33,671 nucleotides of DNA from an uncultured Lachnospiraceae bacterium (GTDB lineage: Bacteria; Bacillota; Clostridia; Lachnospirales; Lachnospiraceae): contig CANQRW010000037.1 of the NCBI GenBank assembly GCA_947626365.1, forward strand, positions 1-33,671. The letters run 5' to 3'. Below, piece by piece: positions 6,994-22,881 of this stretch. The translations under genes were made by a program, and so were the position numbers. Within the stretch, counting starts at the first letter, position 1. Each line of letters opens with the position of its first letter. The notes under the pieces were generated by a model. The model did not search any database. It worked only from the letters and a program-made list of their open reading frames with translations, and was not told the DNA's origin.

Positions 6994-7007
6994 CATGCAC
7001 CCCCTGC

Positions 7008-8942: not shown

Positions 8943-9028
8943 CAGCTCCTTTCACCGCCTTAAGGGCGGCAGGGAAAAGGCAGACGCCCATTCCCCGCCA
9001 CCCGGCGGCTGTGCTATTGCTTATCTGG

Positions 9029-9595
9029 TTATGACAGGAAATCCTCCTCGTCCTCATCTGCAAAATCATCCTCCGCACGGGAACGCCCGCCCAAAGGCTC
9101 CCCGTCACGGATTTTCTGTAAATTGTTCAGCCCGCAGGCGATACCCTTATTCCCGTTGGAATTGAAGGCATAGAAATTGATGCTCGCCCTGCCGTACACG
9201 CCGCTGTATACCTCGGAATGGTCTAAAATTGGCTGGCGGTCTGCATCCACGATTCCCGGTGCCGTGGAGCTGTTGGCATTGACGAAATAAGAATCCGCAT
9301 AAGCCTCATCATCCGGGCGCTCCACATCCCCGTCACGCAGCGGGGTCTTCAGTACGGAAAGCGCCGGGACGCTCCTGCCGTTCCCCTTCAGCTTTGCCTC
9401 GCCCTCACGGTACGCCGCCTTGATCGCCTCCTCAATCTTGGCAATGGTCTTTTTGTCCGACTTCGGGATGATGAGCGACACGGAGAACTTCGGCGTGCCG
9501 CCATTAATTGCCTTCGCTTCCCATGCGTTGCAGTAGCTCCACCGGGTATTTGGCCCGGTGATCACTTTCGTTGGGTTATTGACATTGTTTGACAT
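9029..9595 (-). CDS. DUF2815 single-stranded DNA-binding protein
   Basis: A 188-residue protein of the DUF2815 family, the gp2.5-like OB-fold single-strand binding proteins of Gram-positive phages. Typical features are the N-terminal TGPNTRWSYCNAWE, the PKFSVSLIIPKSD strand and the SGVYGRASINFYAF core. The tail is strongly acidic (ADEDEEDFLS), as expected for single-strand binding proteins that recruit partners through an acidic C-terminus. It lies between the Cas4-like exonuclease and the polymerase. The start ATG at 9595 follows a GGAGGAAAATC ribosome binding site. Confidence 0.9.
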   Translation of the reverse strand: MSNNVNNPTKVITGPNTRWSYCNAWEAKAINGGTPKFSVSLIIPKSDKKTIAKIEEAIKAAYREGEAKLKGNGRSVPALSVLKTPLRDGDVERPDDEAYADSYFVNANSSTAPGIVDADRQPILDHSEVYSGVYGRASINFYAFNSNGNKGIACGLNNLQKIRDGEPLGGRSRAEDDFADEDEEDFLS

Positions 9596-9611
9596 ATGAT
9601 TTTCCTCCTGA

Positions 9612-10736
9612 CTATTCTTCCTTGAAATCTTCCTGCGCCGTGTTCATCTCCGGCCGCTTGTCGCTCTCCGGGACTAATGCGGGCTTGCCCTGCGGCTTCT
9701 CCACAAGGCCCTTTAAAACCTCCGCAAATTTCTTCTTGCCCAGCAGCTTCTCCATGGCCGTGATGCCCAGGAGCTTCGGCTCATACGGGTCGAAGCCCGC
9801 CTTCTTCACAGTATCCGCCACAGCCTGTTCATCGGTGTACTTCCGGTTGGATCTTCCGGCCACGACTTTAAATCCGTCATACTTCACGCCGGAGAGCGCC
9901 TGCTGCAATGCAAACTCCTTCACATCCGCTGCCCATGCCGCCAGTTCATCCGCTTTCACGAGGATTGCCGCGATCTCGTCATCCTCCAGCGTGGCGGGCA
10001 TCTCAAAGTCATATTTTGCAAGTTCTAGGTTGTACTCTGCCCGCTTCCTGCAGACCGCCTTCGCCTTGCAGAATTTGCAGTGTTCCCCCGCACAGAACTC
10101 ACCCTCCCCGGCATAGGCCAGCTTTGCCTTTTCCGAAAGCTCGCCCTCCGCCCACTGGAGCAGGTCATCCTTCGCCATGGCATACACGCTGACATTTTCC
10201 CGGCGCGGCTGGTAGATCGCCATGCGGACGGTGTCAATATCATAAATGCCGTCAAACAGCTCCAGCGCACCCAGGGCATACAGCATCATCTGGGGGTTCC
10301 CCTCGGCGGAAACCTCCACGCCCTTGCCGTGCTTGTAATCGATGATATACAGCGTCCCGTCTGCAATGATCACGCAGTCACCGGTGCCGAATCCCTCCTC
10401 CACATACCGGGAAAAGTCCAGCCGCTGCTCAATCAGCACCACCGGGTCCTTGCAGGTTTTCTTTGCCTCCTCCACAAGCGAAAGGACATACTCTGCATAG
10501 CCGCAGGCGCATTCCTCCATCTCATCATCGTAAAAGGAAAGCCCTGCGGTCGGGTCTGTGGTCTCCATCCCCAGGGACAGCTTCAGCTTGTGTTCGCACA
10601 GGCTGTGGGCATCGGTGCCCTGCTGCGCATATTCGCTGCCCGTATCCTTATAATTCTCACAGAGCCTTGCAGACGGCGGGCAGGCAAGCCACCGGTGGCT
10701 GGAGGATGCGGACAGTAAAGCGTGTCTCCCCATCAC
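9612..10736 (-). CDS. DUF2800 protein, Cas4/RecB-like exonuclease
   Basis: A 374-residue DUF2800 protein of the PD-(D/E)XK Cas4/RecB-nuclease superfamily, used by phages of this type for recombination or end resection beside the single-strand binding protein. The nuclease core is visible: GTGD (117-120), IIDYKHG with the D133-x-K135 pair, and NPQMMLYA with the conserved Gln near 149. A Cas4-like iron-sulfur cluster is suggested by cysteines near the N-terminus (C19, C26) plus C215, C220, C223 and C229. Its first bases overlap the stop of the upstream gene. Together with the single-strand binding protein it resembles a phage recombination pair. Confidence 0.85.
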   Translation of the reverse strand: MMGRHALLSASSSHRWLACPPSARLCENYKDTGSEYAQQGTDAHSLCEHKLKLSLGMETTDPTAGLSFYDDEMEECACGYAEYVLSLVEEAKKTCKDPVVLIEQRLDFSRYVEEGFGTGDCVIIADGTLYIIDYKHGKGVEVSAEGNPQMMLYALGALELFDGIYDIDTVRMAIYQPRRENVSVYAMAKDDLLQWAEGELSEKAKLAYAGEGEFCAGEHCKFCKAKAVCRKRAEYNLELAKYDFEMPATLEDDEIAAILVKADELAAWAADVKEFALQQALSGVKYDGFKVVAGRSNRKYTDEQAVADTVKKAGFDPYEPKLLGITAMEKLLGKKKFAEVLKGLVEKPQGKPALVPESDKRPEMNTAQEDFKEE

Positions 10737-11110
10737 AGCACCTCCGCTTCCGCAAGGAGCGCCGCATACTCCGCCGGGTCGATCTCCGACAGCTTATCCG
10801 CGCCGTGCTTTGCAAGCAGCTCCCTCACTTCCTCCGTGTGTCCGGAGCGGGACTTCTCCGCCAGCACCGCACGGACTTCCTCCAGCGTCAGCGGCTTCTC
10901 TTCCGGCTCCTGCTTTGCCGCCTTCGTATCTTTCTTCGCCGTGTTCTTTGCAGCCGCCTTCCCGTTCTTTCCCGCTTTCTCCGGCTCCTTTGTGGCCGTC
11001 AGCTCTGCCGCCGCATCATTGTTTTCCACCGCATCCGCAACGGCCTGCAGGCTGTCGGCAAGGGAGCGTAAATCCCCGATGACGTCAAGCAGTAACTTCA
11101 CTTTTCCCAT
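10733..11110 (-). CDS. Lys/Ala-rich phage protein with C-terminal helical domain
   Basis: A 125-residue protein in three parts: an N-terminal helix (VKLLLDVIGDLRSLADSL), a low-complexity Lys/Ala/Glu linker (about 45-70), and a C-terminal helical domain (LTLEEVRAVLAEKSRSG...LLAKHGADKLSEID) that resembles SAP/HeH nucleic-acid-binding helices. Such proteins are common next to DUF2800 genes in clostridial phages and are often misnamed as an rRNA biogenesis protein because of the linker. A DNA-binding or accessory role is inferred. It overlaps both neighbours. Confidence 0.75.
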   Translation of the reverse strand: MGKVKLLLDVIGDLRSLADSLQAVADAVENNDAAAELTATKEPEKAGKNGKAAAKNTAKKDTKAAKQEPEEKPLTLEEVRAVLAEKSRSGHTEEVRELLAKHGADKLSEIDPAEYAALLAEAEVL

Positions 11111-11303
11111 GTACGTTTCCTCCTTCCATAACTTCGCTCACTGCCAGCTCCCGGACGGAATCGCCCGGAACGATGATGGCCAGCCTCCGCTTCTCCCCAA
11201 GGAGGAAGCGCACGAGACGCTCCCTCACAGAGATATGGCGGCAGCTCACGATCCCGCCAGATGCCGGCTCCTTTGAAACACTGATCCTTAACATGTGTTC
11301 CAT
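11085..11303 (-). CDS. Small phage protein of unknown function
   Basis: A 72-residue protein beginning MEHMLRISVSKEPAS. The ATG at 11303 has GGAGGT seven bases upstream; an ATG at 11318 would overlap that site. Its last codons overlap the start of the next gene. It has a beta-rich, basic pattern (RHISVRERLVRFLLGEKRRLAII). No family recognised. Gene order places it as the first structural partner of the DUF2800 operon. Confidence 0.6.
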   Translation of the reverse strand: MEHMLRISVSKEPASGGIVSCRHISVRERLVRFLLGEKRRLAIIVPGDSVRELAVSEVMEGGNVHGKSEVTA

Positions 11304-11386
11304 GTCCATGACCTCCATTTCCGAAAGGCTGATTTTTCGCGCCTTTCACTATACGGAGATTTGGACGCCCTTTTGGATACCCACAT

Positions 11387-11773
11387 TTAAAAATTTTTCT
11401 TGAAAATTTTCTTTGCGGCCTTGATTGACTTCACGACCGCCCGATGCTGTACCTTTTCCTCCCGCGCAATCTCACGCATGGATTTCCCGTCTGCAAGCAT
11501 CAGAAGTCTCCGCCGCTGTACTTCCGACAGCCCGTCCAATACATAGGCAATACGCTCCGTATCCAACTCCTGCTCCATCTGCGTTTCCGGTGTTTCTTTA
11601 GTGGCATATTCCGCACCCTCGAACTGTGCCGCATCCAGCGAATAGCAGTGATACCGCTCCTTGCGGGAAAGGTTGTCCTCCAGCCGCCTGTCCTCAATGA
11701 TGACGGCACCGATGGATTCCTCCACCTCGACTTCCGACACTGTGCCATCCGCAAATTCATATTTTATTTTCAT
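11387..11773 (-). CDS. Sigma-70 region 4-like regulator
   Basis: A 128-residue protein with a C-terminal helix-turn-helix of the sigma-70 region 4 type: LDGLSEVQRRRLLMLADG (about 78-95), then KSMREIAREEKVQHRAVVKSIKAAKKIF. Proteins of this shape are common at the head of early operons of clostridial phages and integrative elements, where they regulate element transcription. It has no region 2, so it is unlikely to be a complete sigma factor. It is the first gene of the replication operon. A perfect 12-bp inverted repeat lies directly before its ribosome binding site (GGAGGGAATCTG), pointing to control at this position. Confidence 0.75.
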   Translation of the reverse strand: MKIKYEFADGTVSEVEVEESIGAVIIEDRRLEDNLSRKERYHCYSLDAAQFEGAEYATKETPETQMEQELDTERIAYVLDGLSEVQRRRLLMLADGKSMREIAREEKVQHRAVVKSIKAAKKIFKKNF

Positions 11774-11784
11774 TCAGATTCCCT

Positions 11785-11821
11785 CCAGTCTTGAAATTTG
11801 GTTAAACAGTTTCAAGACTGG
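11785..11821 (-). promoter_or_regulatory. Perfect 12-bp inverted repeat before the sigma-like gene
   Basis: The arms CCAGTCTTGAAA (11785-11796) and TTTCAAGACTGG (11810-11821) are perfect inverted repeats separated by 13 bases. On the minus strand the downstream arm ends in CTGG, directly abutting AGGG of the ribosome binding site. It may be a protein operator for the encoded HTH protein or an RNA hairpin that affects access of ribosomes. Confidence 0.6.
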
Positions 11822-11873
11822 AATGGCGGCGCACGGCCCCTGAAAGGTGGCTTATGACCACATCTCAGGGCGC

Positions 11874-11906
11874 AAAAAAAGCGTACCGGCAGAGTGTCCG
11901 GTGCGC
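11874..11906 (-). terminator. Intrinsic terminator, minus strand
   Basis: On the minus strand a stem of GCGCACCGG and CCGGTACGC (one G-T pair, loop of eight) is followed directly by seven Ts (11,880-11,874). It would stop transcripts from the cargo side before they enter the phage early operon. Confidence 0.75.
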
Positions 11907-11968
11907 CCATAATAAAAACTATGTACTTTTTTGTATTCTCATTGGGAAACAGATAGGAATGTGTCGAA

Positions 11969-12002
11969 TAAAAAAATTCCGCAGTCCCCCTTGAGGCTGC
12001 GG
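11969..12002 (-). terminator. Intrinsic terminator, minus strand
   Basis: On the minus strand CCGCAG and CTGCGG form a six-bp stem with a 12-base loop, followed by AATTTTTTTA. It lies about 65 bases before a second terminator, giving a tandem pair upstream of the phage early operon. Confidence 0.65.
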
Positions 12003-12274
12003 TATGTACAGAAAAAATATGATGTCTGGCCGTGAGTATTGGGAGCCGGTTCCCTGCCCGTGACATGCCCATGCTATCACCCTTTCCTGGGGATAACATT
12101 TTGTTCCGGCTTCCCCGGAGCCTGCCGGTGCCGCCCGCCGGGAAGCCCTCCAAAACCTCCCGCGGTATGGCCTGTCCTTTTCTCGAACAACAGAAAACAC
12201 CCGGCAAAGAGCAGCCCTCCCGGCTGCTTTTATCGGGTGTCCACATCGTCGGCCTCCTCCTTAGTGGTTCCGCA

Positions 12275-12302
12275 CCGCCTGCCCTGCAGGCGGCATTTTC
12301 TT
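12275..12302 (+). terminator. Hairpin with T-rich tail, plus strand
   Basis: CCGCCTGC and GCAGGCGG form an eight-bp perfect stem with a three-base loop, followed by CATTTTCTT. No plus-strand gene lies upstream. It may end an unrecognised or antisense transcript, or simply be a structured part of the minus-strand RNA. Confidence 0.4.
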
Positions 12303-12332
12303 AAAAATAAGCTGTATTTTCTCCTTCTAAAG

Positions 12333-12383
12333 ACAAAAAGGGCGTACTGCAATCCACATCTATTGTGAAACGCAGCACGCCCT
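12333..12383 (-). terminator. Intrinsic terminator, minus strand
   Basis: On the minus strand AGGGCGTGCTGC and GCAGTACGCCCT form a 12-bp stem (one G-T pair) followed by TTTTTGTCTTT. It lies 31 bases after the stop of the 34-residue zinc-knuckle frame and ends the cargo operon that begins with the unknown cluster. Confidence 0.75.
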
Positions 12384-12413
12384 CCAATATGTATCGCATT
12401 CTTTTTACCGTTT

Positions 12414-12518
12414 TTAAATGTATTGCGGGAACCCAGGCACCGTCTCGCCCGACGGCATCTGTTCAATGTCAAGGATGTGCCGCCCGCATTTAGGGTTCGG
12501 GCATCTGGTCCTTTCCAC
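12414..12518 (-). CDS. Possible 34-residue zinc-knuckle peptide (GTG start)
   Basis: A short frame, too small for standard gene finding, beginning with GTG at 12518 behind GGGGAGGCGGTTGTCA. The peptide begins MERTRCPNPKCGRHILD, a CPxxKCG knuckle reminiscent of the small Com-like zinc proteins of phages, but the second cysteine pair is absent. Just upstream, another frame reads TYQCGEAVVSG, so the gene may be a frameshifted remnant of a longer zinc-ribbon protein. A terminator follows after 31 bases, which supports its being the end of a transcribed unit. Confidence 0.4.
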   Translation of the reverse strand: MERTRCPNPKCGRHILDIEQMPSGETVPGFPQYI

Positions 12519-12614
12519 TGACAACCGCCTCCCCGCACTGATATGTAACAAGGGAACCAGACATGAAATGTTCCTGCCAGTTCCCTTTTATCGTTTGTGC
12601 TTTATGTATTCTTC

Positions 12615-13151
12615 TCATGCCCTCGCATCAAATCCGCCCTGCACTTCCATCCCGGAATTTATCTCCTGCCTTGCCGCATGGTACGCATCATAGTAGGCAG
12701 CCTTCAAAGCCCCATGTACTTCCGTCTCCGCTTTTGATTCCTTCTCATGCCAGCCTACGCCCGCAGTATAGGTCAGTATCTCGTCACCGTTCCCGTCATA
12801 CACATGGATGGCGGAACCCGTACCTTCTGACTGGAACTTGGCTTCATACGGCTCGCCAAACAGGATGCACAGCCACCGCCTATCAGCCTCCTTTATTTCT
12901 TTCATATCCGCCATTTCCTGATTGAGTTTCCCCATCAGCGCAGACCTGTCCGGCGCAACTTTGGCAACCTCGCTTTTCCGCAGGGCAAGGAACTTATTCC
13001 CCATATAGACATTCTGCGCCGCATCCTCCCTGGCGTATTCCGTTATCTTCTCCCGGAGGGAATCAGACAGCTTCCATTCCTTCTTGGATGATGTCTTTCC
13101 TGACTTTCGGATGCCTGCCTGATGGCTTTTTGCTATTCCTGTAATATCCAT
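12615..13151 (-). CDS. Cargo protein of unknown function, FDA(R/K)A-tail family
   Basis: A 178-residue protein starting MDITGIA behind AGGAGGAGACTTAA. I do not recognise a named family. Its second half aligns by eye with the protein at 14,330-14,932: VAPDRSAL (here) and VSPDRKGI (there), then YDGNGDEILTY against YDKNGEMVATY, a Gly-Trp pair, a KAE helix, a YYDAYHAA/YNEAWGNA helix, and the last residues FDARA against FDAKA. There is no signal peptide or membrane segment. It is the last large gene of the minus-strand unknown cluster. Confidence 0.75.
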   Translation of the reverse strand: MDITGIAKSHQAGIRKSGKTSSKKEWKLSDSLREKITEYAREDAAQNVYMGNKFLALRKSEVAKVAPDRSALMGKLNQEMADMKEIKEADRRWLCILFGEPYEAKFQSEGTGSAIHVYDGNGDEILTYTAGVGWHEKESKAETEVHGALKAAYYDAYHAARQEINSGMEVQGGFDARA

Positions 13152-13186
13152 TTAAGTCTCCTCCTATCCGGTTGGAAACCGGACAT

Positions 13187-13837
13187 CTATGAACACAACA
13201 CTCCTAAAAGTGATTTGTACCTTTCCGTTTCATTTTTTATATCTTCGGCAGTAACACCGTAATACAAATATATCTTTTTATACAGTTTCCTTAACTGTTT
13301 CATGGTTTTCTTATCCCCGCTGAATGAACCGTCAAGCACCTGCCAGACAGTCTCCACTCCTATCTGCATACGGTCTTTCTCTGTCAATTTAATCTCATAT
13401 ATGTGGAAATCTAATGGGAAGATGTCATCTGCAATTTCCGCTGCTATCTTCTCCCGTTCCTGAATCTGCCCCAAAAATGTTTTTAAGGCTTCCACATTTT
13501 CTCCTTCGGGTGGCTTCAAATCCATCAGTTCACCAAGTAAATCCGGGCGGTTGCGCATTACAAGAGATGCCTTTAAGCACTTTCTCTGTTCCTGATAATT
13601 AAAAGACTGCTGCGAAACCTCCACCGCACCATATTCCCGTTTCAGCAGTTCCACAACTTCCTCCAGTGTATGGGGATTGGCAGTAATCTGCTTTTTTAGT
13701 CTGTTCCTTTTCAATTCGCGGAAGTAATTCTGTATGCGTATTGTGAGCTTTACCTTGCCGCCTTTTCCTACAATAAAAATACTTGTAGGCCCATCTGCTC
13801 CGCCTATAATGGATACACTGCCTGCGCCCTTTCCCAT
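13187..13837 (-). CDS. Unknown protein with N-terminal GGADGPT motif
   Basis: A 216-residue protein beginning MGKGAGSVSIIGGADGPT. The GGADGPTSIF stretch matches the membrane motif of oxaloacetate/glutaconyl-CoA decarboxylase beta subunits, but nothing else does: the rest is a soluble, Lys/Glu-rich helical protein with no membrane segments, so it is not a decarboxylase. A similar motif recurs in the protein at 21,854. The start is either the ATG at 13837 (GGGAG eight bases upstream, preferred) or the ATG at 13852. The middle (about 55-80) has a helix followed by a region rich in Gln and Arg. Function unknown. Confidence 0.7.
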   Translation of the reverse strand: MGKGAGSVSIIGGADGPTSIFIVGKGGKVKLTIRIQNYFRELKRNRLKKQITANPHTLEEVVELLKREYGAVEVSQQSFNYQEQRKCLKASLVMRNRPDLLGELMDLKPPEGENVEALKTFLGQIQEREKIAAEIADDIFPLDFHIYEIKLTEKDRMQIGVETVWQVLDGSFSGDKKTMKQLRKLYKKIYLYYGVTAEDIKNETERYKSLLGVLCS

Positions 13838-13870
13838 ATCTACATCTCCCATTCAAAAAATAAATCCTGC

Positions 13871-13951
13871 TCCCCGATTCCCCAATCTACCAGAAAGCCG
13901 GGGGATGTCTGCCCTGTTCGTCCTCTGTGGCTTATTGGGGATATGCTACTG
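13871..13951. repeat. Intergenic repeat R, copy 1
   Basis: About 80 bases nearly identical to 14,234-14,312. The two share the blocks CCCGATTCC, CTGCCCTGT, CGTCCTCTG and the 20-base GGCTTATTGGGGATATGC region, with scattered changes. The copy contains CCCCAAT and ATTGGGG in inverted order, so it can fold. It lies between two cargo genes. Confidence 0.75.
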
Positions 13952-13966
13952 TTGAACTTTTGCATA

Positions 13967-14146
13967 CTATGTTTTCATTTTTCCAAAAATCGCACCAATC
14001 ACTGCACCGAAAGCACTTCCCATGAAAAGAACAACTAACAAATGCTCAAGAAGCAAAATACTAAACATTCCTCCAACAAATGTTCCATAAGCTATACCCC
14101 AGCCAACATAATAAGACACTTTATCTTTGTTGTTGCCTTTTTTCAT
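13967..14146 (-). CDS. Small two-helix membrane protein with glycine zipper
   Basis: A 59-residue protein: a basic N-terminus (MKKGNNKDK), then two hydrophobic helices (about 13-36 and 38-55) rich in Gly and Ala (GWGIAYGTFVGG; GSAFGAVIGAIFGK), the glycine-zipper pattern of small membrane proteins. The start ATG at 14146 has AAAGGTAGAATT upstream; the open frame continues to 14188 without a ribosome site. It lies between repeat copies R and among the unknown cargo genes, so it may anchor or export them. That role is speculative. Confidence 0.65.
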   Translation of the reverse strand: MKKGNNKDKVSYYVGWGIAYGTFVGGMFSILLLEHLLVVLFMGSAFGAVIGAIFGKMKT

Positions 14147-14185
14147 AATTCTACCTTTTCTTTCAAAAACATGAAGCCACCCCTG

Positions 14186-14206
14186 CACCCTCTACGGAAT
14201 AGGGTG
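14186..14206. repeat. Short hairpin CACCCT-AGGGTG, related to the 15.56-kb hairpin
   Basis: CACCCT and AGGGTG separated by nine bases, embedded in CCACCCCTGCACCCT...CGGAATAGGGTGTAA. The same flanks occur at 15,558-15,610, where a second 10-bp stem is inserted between the arms. Confidence 0.55.
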
Positions 14207-14233
14207 TAAGATCCATACCGACCTTCACCTCAT

Positions 14234-14312
14234 CTTCCCGATTCCTCAATCTGCCGGAAACCGGAGATGCCTGCCCTGTCCGTCCTCTGCGGCTTATTGG
14301 GGATATGCAGCC
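14234..14312. repeat. Intergenic repeat R, copy 2
   Basis: Second copy of the ~80-base repeat at 13,871-13,951, in the same orientation, located between the gene ending at 14,330 and the small membrane protein gene. It includes CCTCTGCGG, which is also an arm of the hairpin at 15,592-15,601. Confidence 0.75.
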
Positions 14313-14329
14313 GTGGGATTTCTTTCCTG

Positions 14330-14932
14330 CTATGCTTTGGCATCAAAGCTACTCTGCATATTTTCTACATTTATCATTTCTTCACTTGCCATTGGAATCC
14401 CCCTCTTAGCATTTCCCCAAGCCTCATTATAGATCATGCACATTTCCGTCTGTCTCGCCGCCTCTGCCTTGGTAGTGAACATCGTCCATCCATTATTGGA
14501 ATAAGTTGCCACCATCTCCCCATTCTTATCATAGAACTCTATGTACTCACTATTGCCTGACGGCAGTTTCTGATATTTCACTTTCCCTTCCAGCAGAGTT
14601 GCCACAAAATCTATCGGCTTTAACACATTCTGCCTGTTTCTTGAAACAGCTTTCAGACCAGAAGTGATGATCCCTTTTCTGTCCGGGGAGACTTCCGATG
14701 TGTAACTTTTCATCAGTCTGTTGAAGCCTTCTGATTTATTTTGGAATTGCCCTTTTGCAAAATCCTTATATGCTTGTTCCACAATCTGTTTCCGATATTC
14801 TTCATCGCTGATGCCGCTTTTCTTTTTGGAGAAAACATATTTGTCATTGAAGTCTGGCAGATGAATGCCGCCTATACTGCCTGTTCCCGAAAAATATCTG
14901 TTTTGCAATCCATTGGACGAACTTACCTGCAT
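14330..14932 (-). CDS. Cargo protein of unknown function, FDA(R/K)A-tail family
   Basis: A 200-residue protein that ends FDAKA and is related by eye to the protein at 12,615-13,151 over its C-terminal ~120 residues. It also shares the stretch A-Y-K-D-F-A-K-G ... E-V-S-P-D-R-K with the 388-residue protein upstream (KEFATG ... TVSPDRKAI). The N-terminus is Ser/Gly-rich (MQVSSSNGLQNRYFSGTGS) and probably disordered. There is no membrane segment. Its ATG overlaps the TAA of the previous gene (TAATG), so the two are translationally coupled. Function not recognised. Confidence 0.75.
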   Translation of the reverse strand: MQVSSSNGLQNRYFSGTGSIGGIHLPDFNDKYVFSKKKSGISDEEYRKQIVEQAYKDFAKGQFQNKSEGFNRLMKSYTSEVSPDRKGIITSGLKAVSRNRQNVLKPIDFVATLLEGKVKYQKLPSGNSEYIEFYDKNGEMVATYSNNGWTMFTTKAEAARQTEMCMIYNEAWGNAKRGIPMASEEMINVENMQSSFDAKA

Positions 14933-15459
14933 TATTTCACCCTCTCCTGTAAATTTCCTAATCGGTTGAGCATTTCAGGAATATTCCCTTGAATGACCTG
15001 CCCCTGGGCTACTATTCTGGCACAGGACTTCTGCCACTCTACTTCCTGCTCATATTGCATATCCAACCATTCAATTTCTTCTTCCTTTGTCAGCGGCGTT
15101 CCATCTGCCTTATAATACCGTTCATTTTCATGGCGCTGCTCAATTTCGGAATACAACCTTGCATAACTCAGCCCACAGGCATTTACAACATCCGAATAGC
15201 CATACTGTCCTTTTTCTTCCCTGACTTCCTTTAATATTCCAGCTCTCATATCACTGAGTGATACCGCCGACTGCACCACTGTATGCTTAATCTTATCCAT
15301 TAAGATTTCCCTGTTTTTCGATAATTGGGAAACTTCTAATGAATCTCTATCAAATACTTTCTGGGCTTCATTTTGACTTCCCTGAGATTTCAAATACTCT
15401 CTATTAAGTTTAAGATCATCCTGTAAATGAACACGATAATCGTAAATACTAATTGACAT
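14932..15459 (-). CDS. Coiled-coil cargo protein of unknown function
   Basis: A 175-residue, strongly helical protein (MSISIYDYRVHLQDDL...) with heptad-like stretches around residues 40-70 and 105-165 (KEEEIEWLDMQYEQEVEWQKS), suggesting a coiled coil. There is no catalytic motif, signal or membrane segment. The start ATG at 15459 follows AGGAGAAAAATGT. It is coupled to the FDAKA gene that follows, which suggests a two-protein complex. No family recognised. Confidence 0.7.
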   Translation of the reverse strand: MSISIYDYRVHLQDDLKLNREYLKSQGSQNEAQKVFDRDSLEVSQLSKNREILMDKIKHTVVQSAVSLSDMRAGILKEVREEKGQYGYSDVVNACGLSYARLYSEIEQRHENERYYKADGTPLTKEEEIEWLDMQYEQEVEWQKSCARIVAQGQVIQGNIPEMLNRLGNLQERVK

Positions 15460-15557
15460 ACATTTTTCTCCTATTTAAAATATCCGCCAAATGGTAAAAT
15501 GCCACCTATGCTGTCCGTCCTAATACTTAGTCCCTTTCCCGCTCAGAGCCGCCCCTG

Positions 15558-15610
15558 CACCCTCGCAGTCCGCAGAGGCAAAGGTTTATGCGCCTCTGCG
15601 GAATAGGGTG
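15558..15610. repeat. Nested hairpin between cargo genes
   Basis: An outer CACCCT/AGGGTG stem encloses a perfect 10-bp stem CCGCAGAGGC (15,570-15,579) and GCCTCTGCGG (15,592-15,601) with a 12-base loop. There is no T run on either strand, so it is not a typical terminator. It may be an RNA-processing or stability element between the two halves of the unknown operon. The outer arms recur at 14,186-14,206. Confidence 0.6.
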
Positions 15611-15616
15611 TAAAGA

Positions 15617-16783
15617 TTATATCTGTATATCCAATGTACTGCCCGAAGACGGTGCTTTTGTACCTGCTGCCAAGTCAGACTGTATCTGCTGATAAGATAC
15701 GGTCCCTTTTGCGTTTTCCCCATACTCTTTTTTCAGACGTGCCAATTCATCATTATAAATAGATGTAAACACCCGCGCCCTTGCAAATTCTTCCTCCGTG
15801 CTTATGGCTTTCCTGTCCGGGGAAACGGTCTCTCCATGCTGCATACATAATTTCCTATATGCCGCATCATCCCGCTTCCCGGTGGCAAATTCTTTCTGCG
15901 CCAGCTCCTTTATTGCCGCCTCAAATTCTTTCTCCGACATTGCAGGCTTATCACGCTTCGTCATGATGTTATCCCAATTCGGTTTTGTGAATTGAATGTC
16001 AGCCGGCTTGAACCGCAGTGCAAAATTCCCATAATCACATTGGGCTAACGGATTGGTGGAACTTTTCTTATTGCCAAACATCTGCTGTACCATGTTGGCA
16101 TATTGTAAATAATTGTCTCTTGTTATCTGCACTTCGCCGCCTGCACAGTAATTCTTGAAGCTGTCAACCGCTTTCGCAAAACTGTTCACAAACCTTTCTT
16201 TACTGCCCACGTCAAGATTGGAGAACATCCTGTAAATATCAATGTTCGCCTCCCTGTTCAGTTCCACGCTGTTCTTTCCAGAAGCGCTCTTATTCACAAG
16301 GCTTCCCTTCATTTCCGCCGCGCCTTTCCTGTAATCAGGCTTTCCATGCTCCTTATAGAATTTTTCCTGTTCAATCTTCACCTGCTTTGCAACAGACTCG
16401 ATCATATGGTTTACTTTACTGATTTTTTCTTCTGCCTGTTTTCCGTATGCGCCTGTTATCTGCCCTGCCGCTTCATCAGACAGGCCAATCTCCTTACAGG
16501 CATAAGAGAGCTGTGAAACTTTAAGCCCAAGCTGTGCATAAGCCCCAACATTCCATGAATCACCTAAGTTTCCATGCGGCTGTTCTTCCAACCCCCTGAT
16601 CACGCTTTGGAGCTTTTCGCTCTGCTCTTTTGTCACGCTTACACCGTAAAAGCTCGCCATTCCGTTTGCACCGTTTCCGACTGCCCTATGCGCTGCATCG
16701 CCATATTTCCCGCGCTCCCCGCTTTGTATCCTCTGCCGGACCGCTTCCGGCAAGTCCTTTGAAATCTCAACGACCACGCCCAA
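15617..16783 (-). CDS. 388-residue cargo protein with VSPDRK motif; start region frameshifted
   Basis: An unknown protein, helix-rich, with the motif KEFATG...TVSPDRKAI (about 310-340) shared with the gene at 14,330. As written it begins at a poor TTG (16783). Upstream the same frame continues (AGGYPYQPKAANDLKEEV), and a proper start with AAGGAGGATGATGAC lies at ATG 16890, reading MDVSNVG, but that ATG is one base out of frame. The N-terminus matches MDITGIA of the gene at 13,151, so the real gene probably runs 16,890-15,617 with a single-base deletion near 16,870. It is the first gene after the LytTR box at 16,986. Confidence 0.65.
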   Translation of the reverse strand: MGVVVEISKDLPEAVRQRIQSGERGKYGDAAHRAVGNGANGMASFYGVSVTKEQSEKLQSVIRGLEEQPHGNLGDSWNVGAYAQLGLKVSQLSYACKEIGLSDEAAGQITGAYGKQAEEKISKVNHMIESVAKQVKIEQEKFYKEHGKPDYRKGAAEMKGSLVNKSASGKNSVELNREANIDIYRMFSNLDVGSKERFVNSFAKAVDSFKNYCAGGEVQITRDNYLQYANMVQQMFGNKKSSTNPLAQCDYGNFALRFKPADIQFTKPNWDNIMTKRDKPAMSEKEFEAAIKELAQKEFATGKRDDAAYRKLCMQHGETVSPDRKAISTEEEFARARVFTSIYNDELARLKKEYGENAKGTVSYQQIQSDLAAGTKAPSSGSTLDIQI

Positions 16784-16985
16784 GTTCCTCTTTTCGGAAT
16801 CGGGTGTGTTCCTGACTTCCTCCTTCAGGTCATTTGCTGCTTTCGGCTGGTACGGATAACCGCCTGCCGCCCTACATTTGAAACATCCATGTCATCATCC
16901 TCCTTGACTAAATTTTTTTGCGCCAACCCTGACCTATATGCTTCATAGAAATTTTCGGCAGATGTAGCCCATTTTCCTACCCGGA

Positions 16986-17025
16986 CTGCACCAAGTGACT
17001 ATAAATTGCACGAAATGACCATAAA
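16986..17025 (-). promoter_or_regulatory. Tandem 20-bp LytTR-type box, site B
   Basis: On the minus strand two direct 20-bp units lie head to tail: TTTATGGTCATTTCGTGCAA (17,025-17,006) and TTTATAGTCACTTGGTGCAG (17,005-16,986). The pattern TTTATRGTCRTTTSGTGCAA is the same as at site A. A 20-bp period with two half-sites fits LytTR regulators, which bind direct repeats about two helical turns apart. It begins directly after the kinase stop codon and about 95 bases before the ATG at 16890. Confidence 0.75.
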
Positions 17026-17027
17026 GT

Positions 17028-18311
17028 TCATATCATCACCACCGCCTGGAACTTTTCCCCATCGCAGAAGACGGCAAAATCGCCGCCATATTTATCCACC
17101 ACAGCCTTTACGTTCATAAGCCCGATGCCGTGCATCCCTTCACTGGAATCCAACACAATGCCGTCCGTGGCCTGCACTTTCTCCGCCACGGGGTTCTTTA
17201 CGGAAAAAATCATCTTCCCGCCCTCCTGCACCAGCTTGATGTTTATGACGGCTTTCCGCCCCGCCTTTACAACCTTGACACACTCATGGATAGCATTATC
17301 CAGCAGGTTGGAAAGCAGGATTACTATTTCCTCCCCGTCCAGCCGCATCCCGCTCATATCGCCCACCTTGAATATCATGGACACGCCCTGTTCCCTTGCG
17401 GCATGGAACTTCTGGTTCAGGACTGCGTTCACGACAGGGTGGTTCGTGTTGACCGCCGACATCTCCACCGATATGCTCTCCGTCAGCCGTTCCGCAAGCC
17501 CGGCGGCTGCCTGCACATCGCCTTCCTTTAACAGCACCTGCATTGTCCTTATCTGGTTCTTATAGTCATGCATCTTCCGCCCCTGCCGCTCGTAGACCGC
17601 CTGCATATCCCGGTAATGCGCGAGCTGGCTTTCCTTCTTCTGGTCTGTCAGCGCGCTTTCCCGCAGCAGCTCCCCTTTCATAAGGATGTCACGCATCAGC
17701 ACCATCACAAGGAAGTTTATCATGATCAGCCCCGCCGCAATGAAAAGGTAGACCGCCTGCACCTTTTTCTCACCGCTGTAACAGAAATACATAAGCAGCA
17801 TGGACGCCAAGGTGAACAGCGGCACCATGCCGAATTTCCGCCATTCCTTGTGGGAAAGTTCACCATAGCTATTTTTCCCTTTCCATATCCTGCGGAGCAT
17901 AAAAAGCAAGAGAACCCAGACCAGTTTTGTGGTCAGCGCCAAAAAGGTATATTTAAACGCATATGCCTCATCCTTGGCTGTCAGTATGTTCTCAGCCAGC
18001 ACTGAAAAAAGGTCTGCCAAAAACAGCAGCGAATAATTCAACCCGGAAAAGAAAATACACTGCTTCCAGTCCGCCCCATAGAAAACCGCACAGAACACCA
18101 TGTACACCAAAACAATCAACAGTACCTTAATCCCCATTACATCAAAGCGTCCTGCAAGAACCGCAACAGGCACACAGAAAAAATACAGAATAATCTGCCT
18201 GCATTTATCCAGCCAGCCTTTCCTTTTCCTTTCCATGAAGATGTCAAAAAAGTATATGCTCCCCCATGTCTCTATCGCCATGATGCAAAAAGAAAGTATC
18301 CATCTTCCCAT
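17028..18311 (-). CDS. AgrC-like GHKL sensor histidine kinase
   Basis: A 427-residue membrane histidine kinase of the AgrC/GHKL type. The first ~205 residues hold about six hydrophobic segments. A coiled linker then leads to the H box RKMHDYKNQIRT (His near 248), the N box LLSNLLDNAIHEC (about 333-345) and the G box GMHGIGLMNV (about 392-401). AgrC-type kinases sense peptide signals and phosphorylate a LytTR regulator, here the overlapping gene upstream. The start is ATG 18311 (GGAG upstream) or GTG 18317. No AgrB or AgrD is seen nearby, so the ligand is unknown. Confidence 0.9.
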   Translation of the reverse strand: MGRWILSFCIMAIETWGSIYFFDIFMERKRKGWLDKCRQIILYFFCVPVAVLAGRFDVMGIKVLLIVLVYMVFCAVFYGADWKQCIFFSGLNYSLLFLADLFSVLAENILTAKDEAYAFKYTFLALTTKLVWVLLLFMLRRIWKGKNSYGELSHKEWRKFGMVPLFTLASMLLMYFCYSGEKKVQAVYLFIAAGLIMINFLVMVLMRDILMKGELLRESALTDQKKESQLAHYRDMQAVYERQGRKMHDYKNQIRTMQVLLKEGDVQAAAGLAERLTESISVEMSAVNTNHPVVNAVLNQKFHAAREQGVSMIFKVGDMSGMRLDGEEIVILLSNLLDNAIHECVKVVKAGRKAVINIKLVQEGGKMIFSVKNPVAEKVQATDGIVLDSSEGMHGIGLMNVKAVVDKYGGDFAVFCDGEKFQAVVMI

Positions 18312-18313
18312 AA

Positions 18314-19009
18314 TCACTCCGCCCCCTTAAACAATGTGTACTGCCGCTTCACTTCCGGGTACCTTGACTTCGGCACGGATATCTCCTTCCCCGTGGTCAG
18401 GATCATGACATAGCTGCTGATCCTCTCGATGTACTTCATGTTGATGAGGAAACTCTGGTGTATCCGTACAAAGCCCATCCCCCTCAAGTCCTCCTCCAGC
18501 TCATCCATCTTTTTGTAGATGCTGAATGTCTGCTCCTTCGTGTAGAACACATTCTTATGTTTGCTCGTCTCGATATAGATGATGTCGTCCACCTTAAGCC
18601 GGACGTTCCCCTCCACGAAGCCGAACTCCACCACCCGCTCCTCCTGCCGGATTTCCCGCAGGATGTCGTCCATGCACTCCTGCAGGGTCTGTTCCAGGTC
18701 ATCCTTCAAAAGGAACCGGCTCGCCTTTACCTTATACCCGTCCAGCGCATAGTTCACATAGGCAGTGACCAGCACGATATGCACCTTCGGGCATTCCGCC
18801 TTTATCTGCCTTGCCACCTCCAGACCATCCATGCCCTCCATGTTGATGTCGAGAAACACGATGCCGCATTCCCGTATGTAATCCATATCCCCGCACAGGC
18901 TTTTCCCGGAGCCGTATTCCCTTATTTCAAAATCCCGCCCATAGGCTTCCAGCAGCGCCTTAATCGCGCCGCGGTCATCCGCCCTGTCATCGCAGACTGC
19001 TATCTTCAT
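18314..19009 (-). CDS. AgrA-like LytTR response regulator
   Basis: A 231-residue response regulator. The receiver domain (1-120) has the acidic pair D7/D8, the phosphoacceptor D54 in VFLDINMEG and the Lys of the RFLLK segment. The C-terminal LytTR DNA-binding domain (about 130-228) begins VVEFGFVEGNVRLKVDDIIYIET and includes the FVRIHQSFLINMKYI strand typical of AgrA/LytR. It should bind direct repeats such as the 20-bp boxes at 19,067-19,106 and 16,986-17,025. The ATG at 19009 has GGGAGGTCGGTGCG before it. The stop overlaps the kinase start. Confidence 0.93.
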   Translation of the reverse strand: MKIAVCDDRADDRGAIKALLEAYGRDFEIREYGSGKSLCGDMDYIRECGIVFLDINMEGMDGLEVARQIKAECPKVHIVLVTAYVNYALDGYKVKASRFLLKDDLEQTLQECMDDILREIRQEERVVEFGFVEGNVRLKVDDIIYIETSKHKNVFYTKEQTFSIYKKMDELEEDLRGMGFVRIHQSFLINMKYIERISSYVMILTTGKEISVPKSRYPEVKRQYTLFKGAE

Positions 19010-19030
19010 CGCACCGACCTCCCATCATAC

Positions 19031-19060
19031 ATAATATCGGATTATGGGGTATCCCATCAA
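19031..19060 (-). promoter_or_regulatory. Promoter of the two-component operon
   Basis: On the minus strand TTGATG (19,060-19,055), an 18-base spacer and TATTAT (19,036-19,031) give a good sigma-A promoter. The LytTR box ends six bases upstream of the -35, the usual position of an activator site. The transcript would start near 19,024, some 15 bases before the ATG. Confidence 0.7.
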
Positions 19061-19066
19061 ATCCCA

Positions 19067-19106
19067 TTGCACGAAACTCCCATAAATTGCACCAAACGAC
19101 TATAAA
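19067..19106 (-). promoter_or_regulatory. Tandem 20-bp LytTR-type box, site A
   Basis: On the minus strand TTTATAGTCGTTTGGTGCAA (19,106-19,087) is followed directly by TTTATGGGAGTTTCGTGCAA (19,086-19,067). It has the same unit, period and orientation as site B. Its place just upstream of the -35 of the two-component operon indicates self-activation by the LytTR regulator. Confidence 0.75.
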
Positions 19107-19627
19107 GCCGTGTCTGCATATTACCTCTAAGTTCCCCCGCTTTCCAAGCAATTTCCCTTATCAGGCCGCCCGGCCTGCCTATGGGAATGACAGACCGCCG
19201 CATATGGCGGATGGAATCCATAGTGCGGCGGTTTGTCTTTTGTGTATTTTCAGTTTATGAACTATTGCTGCTACAATTAAGAAAGCAACACTGACAGCAA
19301 GTCACACTCCGACATAATGAATGCATAGTAAGTAAACGCCTCCAAAGCTAAAGTTATAAACAGAAGAACAAGTTTTACAAGCAAAGAAGTTTCATGCTTT
19401 GGGAAAAACAGGATAATATTAAACACAAAGGTATTAGCCAACATATGTGTTGGCGTAGTCTGAAAATGCCATAAATACAGCGTCCTGATATAGTAAAAAT
19501 GCAATAACCAACACAGTTATTGACTAACACGTTTTTATTTATATCCCGCCTTCCCAGATTTTTAGTCTTGTTTACCATGGCAAAGCAGGCATCAAAACCA
19601 TTGATTGTTTGCCATTTTTCTACATCA
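19107..19627. other. 520-bp gap with a degraded membrane-protein frame
   Basis: The part from 19,260 on is AT-rich like the ABC operon next to it. On the minus strand, fragments in two frames read hydrophobic stretches: TVLVIAFLLYQDAVFMAF (around 19,520-19,465), and in another frame NIILFF followed by KLVLLFITLALEAFTYYAF, ending SECDLLSVLLS near 19,280. They look like pieces of one small membrane protein broken by a stop and frameshift, the former third partner of the ABC operon. No intact gene is seen. Confidence 0.4.
19189..19241 (+). terminator. Strong terminator-like hairpin, plus strand
   Basis: GACAGACCGCCGCA and TGCGGCGGTTTGTC form a 14-bp stem (one G-T pair) with a 21-base loop, followed by TTTTGTGTATTTT. 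No plus-strand gene is visible upstream, so it either protects the two-component promoter from opposing transcription or ends an unseen RNA. Confidence 0.6.
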
Positions 19628-20269
19628 CTATGAATGCAACTTTGTATAGAAATAAACTGATAGTTTATAAGAAATTGCCCCTATAACTGCCAAAACAACA
19701 ACACTGATAATACTTGCATAATTTGCAAGCCATAAAGCTAAACTTTCCAAATCAACATTAAATTTCTTTAGGATATATGCAATGGCCAAAACCAGCATAA
19801 CGGAAAGCATCATTGTAAATGAACCGCCATTAGCTCCCAGGGCATAACCTGTTGGAATCGTCAGCAATCCATAAAATAGTGCAATGACAAATCCAGCCAG
19901 AGAAAACTTCACGCACAGAGCAAGTGTAAGTTCTTCAAAAAATAATCCTGCTGCAACACACAGAGCGAATGAAATGATAGACATTACAACAGCAAGGATT
20001 GTAAAAAACAAGTATCTGCTTGCAATAATTGTTTTTCGTGTGGCAGGTAGCGCAATCGCAAATTTATCCCATTTACATTGCGTGTCATATACCATAATCG
20101 TTTTAGGAATACCTACTAAAATCAACGGCAGGAAAAGTGATACATACATTGCTCCTACTGATCGAAAATAAGTTAACACAGCCAGTGCAGCAAAAGCGAT
20201 AAGAGCATAGTTCACAGGACGTATACGTTCTCTCATTACATAAAAATCTTTTTGAATTAATCCCTTCAT
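19628..20269 (-). CDS. ABC-2 type permease
   Basis: A 213-residue integral membrane protein with six hydrophobic helices, matching the ABC-2 permease type (ABC2_membrane_5-like) that pairs with a YtrA-regulated ATPase. The N-terminus is MKGLIQKDFYVMRERI, typical of the family, and YDTQCKWDKFAIALPATRKTI (residues about 76-96) is the usual cytoplasmic loop before the next helices. The start overlaps the ATPase stop by four bases. It is probably the membrane half of a small-molecule or peptide exporter. Confidence 0.88.
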   Translation of the reverse strand: MKGLIQKDFYVMRERIRPVNYALIAFAALAVLTYFRSVGAMYVSLFLPLILVGIPKTIMVYDTQCKWDKFAIALPATRKTIIASRYLFFTILAVVMSIISFALCVAAGLFFEELTLALCVKFSLAGFVIALFYGLLTIPTGYALGANGGSFTMMLSVMLVLAIAYILKKFNVDLESLALWLANYASIISVVVLAVIGAISYKLSVYFYTKLHS

Positions 20270-21129
20270 TTTGTTTCCCCCTTTATATAGAACAGCATAA
20301 TATCATCAATGTTTGCGGGTTCTACAATTGCCTTGGGATATTTCTTTTCTGCTTTTCGCCGGTTTCGTACAAGAGCTTTATATTGAAAATCCTGTTTGCG
20401 AAAAGCAATAATCTCTGATTTATCCATACTATCAAATACGGCGGCACCGCAAATCACAATCCCATAGTTATCAATCAGTTCATCTTTAGGGTGGCTGAAG
20501 ATCAACTTGCCCTTGTGTATAAAAGTGACATAATCGGCTACTTTCTCTAAATCACTTGTTATGTGGGTAGAAAACAATACAGAGTGATTTTCGTCTTGAA
20601 CAAAGTCGATAAGGATGTCAAGAATATCATCTCTGATTATAGGGTCAAGTCCACTGGTTGCTTCGTCCAGGATTAACAATTCCGCATTATGAGAAAGAGC
20701 AACCGCAAAAGCCAATTTGACTTTCATCCCTCTTGAAAAATCTTTAATTTTCTTTTTAAGGGGCAGCTCAAATTGTGTAAGATAATTTTGATACTCACGG
20801 TTTTGCCAGTTTGAATAAATACCGGCCATACATTTCCCAAGTTCAATAGGTGTCAATACATCGGGAAAATGATTTTCGTCAAATATTATCCCAATCTTAT
20901 TCTTGATGAAAACTTCATCCAAAATATTGTCTTTTCCAAAAATAGTGATTTGGCCATCTGTAATCGTGATTTCATTAAGTATACAGTTGATTGTTGTGGA
21001 CTTTCCGGCTCCATTTTCTCCGATCAGCCCCATAATTGCACCACGGGGAATTGTGAAACTTAGTTTATTAAGAAGAAAATCCCCATAATCTTTCGTAAGA
21101 TTTTTAACTTCCAAAGCATTACCTGCCAT
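20266..21129 (-). CDS. ABC transporter ATP-binding protein
   Basis: A 287-residue ABC ATPase. Walker A is GENGAGKST (about 37-45), signature FSRGMKVKL (about 134-142; SRGMK in place of SGGQ, as often seen in this subfamily), Walker B LLILDEAT (about 153-160) and switch His in STHITSD. It partners the permease encoded directly downstream. The start ATG at 21129 follows AGGAGGACAATTAA and touches the GntR stop. Composition is more AT-rich than the phage genes, indicating a different origin. Confidence 0.93.
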   Translation of the reverse strand: MAGNALEVKNLTKDYGDFLLNKLSFTIPRGAIMGLIGENGAGKSTTINCILNEITITDGQITIFGKDNILDEVFIKNKIGIIFDENHFPDVLTPIELGKCMAGIYSNWQNREYQNYLTQFELPLKKKIKDFSRGMKVKLAFAVALSHNAELLILDEATSGLDPIIRDDILDILIDFVQDENHSVLFSTHITSDLEKVADYVTFIHKGKLIFSHPKDELIDNYGIVICGAAVFDSMDKSEIIAFRKQDFQYKALVRNRRKAEKKYPKAIVEPANIDDIMLFYIKGETK

Positions 21130-21507
21130 TTAATTGTCCTCCTGATATAAAATCGAAAGCAGCCCTATTAGTTTTTCGAGAGTTATTCCGCTTGACCGGG
21201 CAATCTCTATCGCTTCCGTAAACTTTTCTTCTATCTTTTTTTGCTGCTCCTCCATATAGAAGTCTTGGTTTTGGGCTGATACATAACACCCTTTTCCTGC
21301 CGTTGTTTCTATAAAGCCCTCGCTTTGCAAGGTTTCATAGGCTTTTTGCACAGTCAGTACACTAATCTGTAAAGACTTCGCCAATGCGCGCATTGACGGA
21401 ATAGGTTCACCCGCACTTAATTCACCGCTCATTATTGCAGCTTTAATTTGTGAAGCAATCTGCTCATAAAGTGGCCGGCTCGCCCTATTGCTTACTACTA
21501 TTTCCAT
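21130..21507 (-). CDS. GntR-family regulator (YtrA type)
   Basis: A 125-residue GntR-family regulator of the short YtrA subfamily, which carries an N-terminal winged helix (PLYEQIASQIKAAIMSGEL, PSMRALAKSLQISVLTVQKAYE, FIETTAGKGCYVS) and only a short dimerisation tail. YtrA regulators repress the ABC operon they lead. The start is ATG 21507, with GGGGTG eight bases upstream; the ORF extends to 21522 by a weaker start. The operator-like inverted repeat at 21,528-21,550 supports self-regulation. Confidence 0.92.
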   Translation of the reverse strand: MEIVVSNRASRPLYEQIASQIKAAIMSGELSAGEPIPSMRALAKSLQISVLTVQKAYETLQSEGFIETTAGKGCYVSAQNQDFYMEEQQKKIEEKFTEAIEIARSSGITLEKLIGLLSILYQEDN

Positions 21508-21527
21508 TAATTTACACCCCATCCGTT

Positions 21528-21550
21528 CTGTACTGTTCTAACAAGTACAG
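21528..21550 (-). promoter_or_regulatory. Operator for the GntR/YtrA regulator
   Basis: CTGTACT (21,528-21,534) and AGTACAG (21,544-21,550) form a perfect seven-bp inverted repeat with a nine-base centre. It overlaps the -10 hexamer and the expected transcription start of the operon, where a bound repressor would block initiation. Confidence 0.7.
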
Positions 21551-21577
21551 TATACAACAGAACACACCAGCCGTCAA
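21549..21577 (-). promoter_or_regulatory. Promoter of the gntR-ABC operon
   Basis: On the minus strand TTGACG (21,577-21,572), a 17-base spacer and TATACT (21,554-21,549, preceded by TG) give a near-consensus promoter. The -10 overlaps the operator. Confidence 0.8.
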
Positions 21578-21812
21578 CAGCTTTCAATAAAAAGTTACAG
21601 ACAAATTCTGTAAGGCGGTACAGACAACACAAAGCACACCCCCCTAAAAAAAACAAACTACCAGCACCCCCGCATAAGAACGCCCGTTGACTATACCATA
21701 GAAACTCTCCCGCATTTTATTAGATTGCATGAAACAACTATTTTCTGGAAATGAAAAGCATAGAACTACCATACCGCAGACAAGCGCACTCATAGAATTA
21801 TTTTTGCATACA
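21578..21812. other. Gap between divergent units
   Basis: No gene is supported here. A minus-strand frame of 68 codons lacks a ribosome binding site and protein character. One sequence at 21,725-21,744 (TTGCATGAAACAACTATTTT) resembles a single LytTR half-box of sites A and B, but it is not tandem. Confidence 0.4.
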
Positions 21813-21821
21813 TGGTATAAT
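21813..21821 (+). promoter_or_regulatory. Extended -10 promoter of the 333-residue gene
   Basis: TGGTATAAT is a perfect extended -10 (TGN-TATAAT). The -35 region is poor. It lies 33 bases before the ATG, with AAGGAGGAAC in between. Confidence 0.65.
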
Positions 21822-21853
21822 TGCTTCATTGAACACTTAAGGAGGAACATTTA

Positions 21854-22855: not shown

Positions 22856-22881
22856 TTCCATACTCTCATGCATCATTCATA

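What the first reader, a model, noticed from the sequence alone, without database searches (positions are those of the whole stretch)
12615..16890. Operon of unknown cargo proteins sharing V-(S/A)-P-D-R and FDA(R/K)A motifs
Two proteins (12,615-13,151 and 14,330-14,932) align over their C-terminal halves and end in FDARA or FDAKA. A third (15,617-16,890) shares A-x-KEFA-G...VSPDRKAI with one of them. Two of the N-termini also look alike (MDITGIA, MDVSNVG). They are mixed with a coiled-coil protein, a two-helix glycine-zipper membrane protein and a GGADGPT protein, all on one strand behind a LytTR box. The conserved last five residues could be a recognition tail for export, processing or partner binding. 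I know of no described function.
Basis: partly seen in the sequence, partly recalled or inferred. Interest (0 to 1): 0.78.

Follow-up and report, generated by a model that had tools for sequence, protein, structure and literature searches.

The report
Flagellum-linked protein cassettes in gut commensals
The window carries a small, partly decayed set of uncharacterised proteins that belong to a mobile group found almost only in bacteria with flagellar genes, sharing a short tail and flagellum-type gene switches, so they are probably made with, and perhaps sent out through, the flagellum.

Summary
The observation largely holds. A (12,615-13,151) and B (14,330-14,932) are homologous and share the PDR motif and FDARA/FDAKA tail. 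The 'third protein' is damaged; its ATG is out of frame. None of the six operon proteins passes a Pfam or NCBIfam cut-off.

B relatives (78 loci) are nearly all in Lachnospiraceae, in variable arrays of small proteins with DUF6033 and DUF3879. Sequence-unrelated families there share the tail: 87 of 1172 ORFs, 0.26 expected, by a pattern drawn after seeing the tails.

The link is the flagellum. FlhA is in 57 of 58 genomes behind B loci. In 200 genomes of one family (111 FlhA+), all 66 with DUF6033 and all 14 with DUF3879 are FlhA+. LytTR regulator promoters pair direct repeats with a sigma-28-type -10 (14 of 21; 1 of 424 other genes). DUF6033 genes outside such arrays have sigma-28 sites (6 of 10; 3 of 93 controls).

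Best explanation: mobile, signal-gated members of the flagellar late regulon, probably exported by the flagellar type III apparatus. Export is inferred, not shown. The window's own genome lacks FlhA, flagellin and FliA; its copy was shared recently with another species and is damaged.

The parts
19063..19100 (-). LytTR-type direct repeat (period 20) upstream of the regulator gene
   Evidence: coordinates; one search scores the identical L011 copy 9/10, period 20
19034..19041 (-). sigma-28-type -10 element (CCGATAT core) of the regulator promoter
   Evidence: consensus in PMC3720852 (passages); same layout in 14 of 21 LytTR regulator promoters
18314..19009 (-). LytTR response regulator
   Evidence: Pfam LytTR 1.7e-20, Response_reg 1.8e-15
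17028..18317 (-). GHKL-type sensor histidine kinase
   Evidence: Pfam HATPase_c_5 6.5e-17
16986..17019 (-). LytTR-type direct repeat (period 20 by eye) before the array genes
16952..16959 (-). sigma-28-like -10 element of the array operon, one mismatch to GCCGATAA
15617..16890 (-). D: damaged; ATG at 16,890 lies in another frame, open frame 15,617-16,783; residues 215-388 correspond to a separate B-related protein with a 39-residue gap; residues 1-214 without relatives found; ends LDIQI
14932..15459 (-). C: array protein often just upstream of B; about 48 residues missing against relatives
14330..14932 (-). B: array protein with V-S-P-D-R motif and FDAKA tail, 78 related loci fetched
13967..14188 (-). 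[not shown]
13187..13852 (-). G: protein with GGADGPT start, unknown; relative (32%) beside B in L071
12615..13151 (-). A: paralogue of B with V-A-P-D-R motif and FDARA tail

Best explanation
A, B, the remains of D, and C are members of a large repertoire of small soluble proteins (with DUF6033, DUF3879 and further unnamed families) that belongs to the flagellar late regulon of motile Lachnospiraceae. Some copies are transcribed from plain sigma-28 promoters. Arrays can add a second lock: a GHKL kinase and LytTR regulator, often encoded at the head of the array, act on direct repeats placed about 25-30 bp before a sigma-28-type -10 element, so genes are read only when flagella have been built and a signal is present. 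The proteins have no signal peptide or membrane segment, B has disordered ends, and several families end in a common hydrophobic-Asp-x-x-x tail; I infer that they leave the cell through the flagellar type III export apparatus, with the tail as a docking or targeting signal. The arrays move between species and turn over fast. In the window they lie on a recently shared element in a host without FlhA, flagellin and FliA, and D and C are damaged. Shown by sequence: co-occurrence, promoter layout, tail sharing, the shared element, damage. Inferred: sigma-28 dependence, LytTR binding, export, role of the tail. Function outside the cell is unknown; effectors or modifiers acting on neighbouring cells or host surfaces are my guess.
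For: In one even sample of 200 genomes of the family of Eubacterium plexicaudatum (G450; Lachnospiraceae by my reading): FlhA in 111 (one of them, G660, only a doubtful fragment); DUF3879 in 14, all FlhA+ (p 1.8e-4); DUF6033 in 66, 65 over cut-off, all FlhA+ and none of them G660 (hypergeometric 3.7e-23 if genomes were independent).

LytTR-type repeat plus (A/C)CGATA at fixed spacing: 14 of 21 distinct LytTR regulator genes, 1 of 424 other genes; the 14 fall into about six box types. In a blind scan, 24 of 653 CCGATA sites have a 9-10/10 repeat against 26 of 9267 permuted sites; 15 of the 24 have a regulator or array gene as the next called gene. Flagellin genes of the same genomes: 7 of 22 score 10-11 of 11 for TAAA-N14-16-GCCGATA, 15 of 440 shuffles (8 of 30 loci had no start found). 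Butyrivibrio sigma-28 -10 is MCGATAa (PMC3720852, passages). DUF6033 genes outside LytTR arrays: 6 of 10 with a sigma-28-like site, 3 of 93 control ORFs (p 1.1e-5).

Tail: 87 of 1172 ORFs, 0.26 expected from internal frequency (pattern chosen after seeing tails); by family 57 of 67 A/B, 23 of 77 in the cluster with D and DUF6033-like proteins, 6 of 8 DUF3879, 1 of 916 other ORFs. A/B and DUF3879 profiles do not align (probability 0.5%). 1 of 311 array ORFs has a membrane-like window against 193 of 520 others. B model has disordered ends. FliA over cut-off in 5 of 6 flagellate genomes tested, split in the sixth; none over cut-off in G000, G114, G442.
Against: No secretion data. The tail is absent from the seven FlgM proteins read and from array families c2, c3, c7, c8, c13 and c25 (0 of 104 by the strict pattern), so it cannot be a general flagellar export signal. 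A likeness of array N-termini to FlgM N-termini is not clearly above composition: 29 of the top 40 hits are array proteins, but 30 column-shuffled models give 6-34 of 40; only the best E-value (0.0028) beats all shuffles (0.057 or more), and the FlgM C-terminal half used as a control also draws 26 of 40 array hits. Array proteins are not free of cysteine (0.2-1.0% against 1.7%). Array genes themselves seldom have the repeat-plus-CCGATA layout directly upstream (2 of 194), so its reach over the array rests on operon structure. 20 of 45 loci show a LytTR regulator upstream. B and D are rare in the even family sample (3 and 4 of 200, own genome included). The window's own genome lacks FlhA, flagellin and FliA, and one FlhA+ B carrier, G487, has no flagellin match. 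Genomes are related, so counts are not independent. Four of 10 DUF6033 genes show no sigma-28 site.
Confidence: 0.6

Rival explanations
1. Sigma-28 regulon proteins that stay inside the cell: they are made with flagella and act on motility, chemotaxis or gene control in the cytoplasm, and the tail binds an intracellular partner.
For: All regulon evidence fits equally; cysteine is low but present; no export shown.
Against: Variable arrays, many copies in some genomes and mobility are unusual for core motility factors; lack of hydrophobic stretches and disordered ends of B fit exported substrates.
Confidence: 0.25
2. The tail is a C-terminal ligand or degron read by a protease or PDZ-type domain (for example a C-terminal processing protease), giving processing or turnover rather than export.
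For: Short, terminal, hydrophobic-Asp pattern on a disordered arm.
Against: The last residue varies widely (A, V, I, L, G, M, F, C); it does not explain restriction to FlhA+ genomes.
Confidence: 0.1
3. Ordinary mobile-element or phage cargo with no tie to flagella; co-occurrence reflects shared ancestry of motile lineages.
For: In the window the array lies beside phage-like replication genes, and 16,600 bp are 100% identical in a genome whose sigma-70-type gene region is only about 78% identical.
Against: No relatives of A/B confirmed in viral contigs and none of D in phage or plasmid records; 66 of 66 DUF6033 genomes FlhA+ in a sample drawn evenly from the family (I infer from matching FlhA coordinates that it is essentially the sample, which spans 199 genera); promoter architecture.
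Confidence: 0.05

Closest known systems
[quoted passage not shown]
   Same: Non-structural proteins of the flagellar sigma-28 regulon (Feds: passages of PMC6196472); non-flagellar proteins exported by the flagellar type III system (PMC5223770: listing and start of abstract)
   Different: No sequence relation was tested; LytTR gating, arrays, a shared tail and mobility are features seen here and, as far as I recall, not described there
DUF6033 (PF19498) and DUF3879 (PF12995)
   Same: Occur in the same arrays, same tail pattern, same restriction to FlhA+ genomes
   Different: The window proteins A, B, C, D do not match either model; A/B and DUF3879 profiles do not align
C-terminal export signal of early flagellar subunits (FlgE residues 371-380 in Salmonella)
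   Same: A C-terminal stretch that helps target a protein to the flagellar export machinery (passages of PMC10936197)
   Different: That signal is not at the extreme end and has a different sequence; no homology claimed
Agr-type LytTR/GHKL two-component systems
   Same: Same domains; direct-repeat operators with 20-22 bp period here, as recalled for Agr-type regulators
   Different: Here the repeats sit before a sigma-28-type -10 element rather than a housekeeping one (recalled)

Membership tests
DUF6033 (PF19498) | HMM match over cut-off (25 bits) | tested here: not met
   no match for A, B, C, D; met by array neighbour L015:1653-2339 (33.3 bits)
DUF3879 (PF12995) | HMM match over cut-off (27 bits) | tested here: not met
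   no match for A, B, C, D; met by L019 and L022 neighbours
Oxaloacetate decarboxylase beta subunit (PF03977), for protein G | domain match over cut-off | tested here: not met
   22 of 349 positions, 21 bits against 31.6
LytTR/GHKL two-component system | receiver plus LytTR domain; GHKL ATPase kinase | tested here: met
Flagellar sigma-28 regulon | sigma-28 promoter element, by sequence | tested here: met
   LytTR regulators 14 of 21 with repeat plus MCGATA; DUF6033 6 of 10; window regulator promoter CCGATAT. Transcription itself not tested.
Flagellar sigma-28 regulon | host encodes flagella and FliA | tested here: inconclusive
   met in relatives: FlhA 57 of 58, 66 of 66 and 14 of 14, FliA in 5 of 6 tested and split in the sixth; not met in the window's own genome
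Flagellar type III export substrates | FlhA-dependent release from the cell | not testable with these tools
   needs a secretome of a motile carrier
Flagellar type III export substrates | N-terminal export signal resembling FlgM | tested here: inconclusive
   best E 0.0028 beats 30 shuffles but hit counts overlap with shuffles and with the FlgM C-terminal control
Flagellar type III export substrates | no signal peptide or membrane segment | tested here: met
   [not shown]

The most novel reading that the evidence does not exclude
Motile gut Lachnospiraceae carry a mobile, fast-evolving secretome that uses the flagellum as a type III exporter: interchangeable gene arrays, each gated by its own GHKL/LytTR pair with its own operator sequence plus the flagellar sigma factor, and many of their proteins marked by one portable C-terminal tail.
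Probability: 0.4. Interest if true: 0.9.

Novelty: new variant of a known kind. Interest (0 to 1): 0.75.

Why it matters
It gives two Pfam families of unknown function and several unnamed ones a testable role tied to the flagellum in gut commensals, predicts a composite promoter class (LytTR repeats with a sigma-28 -10 element), and suggests that commensal flagella may be a protein export route with a mobile, signal-gated repertoire. DUF6033 alone is in 66 of 111 FlhA+ genomes sampled and 0 of 89 without FlhA.

Tried and rejected
Phage cargo: A/B profile against viral contigs gave no confirmed relative (24 pattern stretches); D against phage and plasmid records gave none. Strict sigma-28 promoters with a -35 before array genes: no enrichment (9 sites in 931,927 bp of loci; one is the window's own D promoter); in the arrays the -35 seems replaced by LytTR repeats. 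First flagellin promoter scans ignored that some loci lie on the other strand; one search replaces them. Short FlhA-like hits were fetched for eight genomes; in all eight the hit lies in an ORF with an HTH-like start, unrelated to the arrays. A/B against C, against DUF3879 and against solved structures: nothing. Counting array hits of a FlgM N-terminal model as proof of export was rejected after the shuffle control. Mis-binning of the window contig: its host flank (GalT) is 95% identical to the same-genus genome G114 over 342 residues and has no match in G442, so the contig fits this genus; mis-binning of the shared stretch in G442 is not excluded. Not done: a structure of C and fold searches with the B model, because the machine was busy each time.

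Literature: no paper in the library holds DUF6033, DUF3879 or DUF4885. Searches on LytTR with flagella, Lachnospiraceae, sigma-28 or flagellar secretion showed listings only, several of them capped at 8 to 15 of more papers; nothing listed describes this. Roseburia hominis paper PMC5622956: passages only, nothing on these genes. One paper search of ten was not used.
Full report

Relatives. One scan of species genomes with B gave 78 loci, nearly all Lachnospiraceae by title, with two Acetobacterium loci, and several copies in some genomes. In even samples of 200 genomes of the window's own family, B is in 3 and D in 4, own genome included. Clustering 1379 ORFs of 80 loci (the 78 plus L089 and L090) shows B in variable arrays with families that include DUF6033 and DUF3879. 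Of 1172 distinct complete ORFs, 87 end in [FLI][DE][AILVTMS][KRQT][AVI], 0.26 expected from internal frequency; I drew the pattern after seeing tails. By family: A/B 57 of 67, the chained cluster that holds D and DUF6033-like proteins 23 of 77, DUF3879 6 of 8, families c2, c3, c7, c8, c13 and c25 together 0 of 104, other ORFs 1 of 916. In a wider DUF3879 set, 20 of 21 end hydrophobic-Asp and one hydrophobic-Asn, after 4 of 25 were set aside as broken, fused or much longer. Ten of 10 DUF6033 proteins read end [FI]D[FYIM]xx. The A/B and DUF3879 profiles do not align, so the tail travels between unrelated proteins.

The flagellum. The exception, G442, holds the same stretch as the window. To set a base rate I used one even sample of 200 genomes of the family of Eubacterium plexicaudatum: FlhA in 111, one of them a doubtful fragment, DUF3879 in 14, DUF6033 in 66. 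Every DUF3879 and every DUF6033 genome is FlhA+ (set check; chance of 66 of 66 is 3.7e-23 if genomes were independent, which relatives are not). In a class-wide sample of 245, one genome has DUF3879 (G316); it too has FlhA, flagellin and FliA. Against: G487, FlhA+, has no flagellin match.

Promoters. Upstream of the LytTR regulators lie two direct repeats with a period of 20-22 bp, then about 25-30 bp, then (A/C)CGATA: 14 of 21 distinct regulator promoters, 1 of 424 other genes, and 2 of 194 array genes, most of which lie inside operons. In a blind scan, 24 of 653 CCGATA sites have a repeat of 9-10 of 10, against 26 of 9267 permuted sites; 15 of the 24 have a regulator or array gene next. The repeat sequence differs between loci, as if regulators had their own operators. 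The -10 resembles that of flagellin genes in these genomes (7 of 22 strong sites, 15 of 440 shuffles) and the published Butyrivibrio sigma-28 -10 (PMC3720852, passages). DUF6033 genes outside LytTR arrays, taken from 10 of the 66 genomes among the stronger hits, have a sigma-28-like site in 6 of 10 against 3 of 93 control ORFs. The DUF3879 operon of G316 sits behind a TAAA...TCGATAT site. The window has both parts twice; the regulator copy matches the consensus core, the operon copy has one mismatch.

Export. Direct evidence is lacking. In favour: restriction to genomes with the export gate, late-class promoters, no hydrophobic segment (1 of 311 against 193 of 520; the control includes membrane proteins), lower cysteine, and disordered first 16 and last 17 residues around a folded core in the B model (mean pLDDT 76.5). 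Inconclusive: likeness of array N-termini to FlgM. Precedents exist for sigma-28 co-expressed proteins in Campylobacter (PMC6196472, passages) and for a C-terminal targeting signal in early flagellar subunits (PMC10936197, passages).

The window's host. G000, and its same-genus relative G114, lack FlhA and a FliA over cut-off; G000 also lacks flagellin. The window 6,333-22,932, all that L011 covers, is 100% identical to L011 in G442, although a sigma-70-type gene region (probably rpoD) of the two genomes is about 78% identical; the GalT flank is 95% identical to G114 over 342 residues and has no match in G442. The simplest reading is a recent transfer of an element, beside phage-like replication genes, between species without FlhA. 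D and C are damaged while A and B are open; whether the damage came before or after the transfer is not known, since L011 carries the same copies.

Verdict. Their meaning lies outside the window: a mobile, signal-gated part of the flagellar late regulon, probably exported. I put 0.6 on the whole statement, about 0.9 on the flagellar regulon part.

Noticed in passing
L092-L099 (for example G485:C20, G468:C6): Short proteins of about 250-320 aa with an HTH-like start match the cytoplasmic part of FlhA (FHIPEP) in eight of eight stretches fetched; a regulator family with an FlhA-like end.
   Followed up: partly
window about 13,880-13,950 and 14,240-14,310; upstream regions of array genes in many loci: Similar intergenic stretches recur between array genes (by eye); some 13-mers are shared upstream of several unrelated array families, possible seeds for shuffling of genes by recombination.
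   Followed up: partly
window 13,187-13,852: Protein G starts with the GGADGPT motif of oxaloacetate decarboxylase beta subunits but matches only 22 residues of that family.
   Followed up: no
window 6,333-22,932 and L011: 16,600 bp 100% identical in two genomes that differ elsewhere: probably a recently moved element.
   Followed up: partly
G450 (Eubacterium plexicaudatum) C1:1,870,226-1,870,884: FliA is found as two pieces in this assembly, although flagellar genes and arrays are present.
   Followed up: no
L202, L203: Arrays directly behind gene pairs that look like BlaI/BlaR1 instead of LytTR systems, a possible second type of gate (the BlaI/BlaR naming is recalled, not from a family search).
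   Followed up: no
L091/L197 (G316): DUF3879 operon lies beside a relaxase-like gene (naming by eye), another sign of mobility.
   Followed up: no
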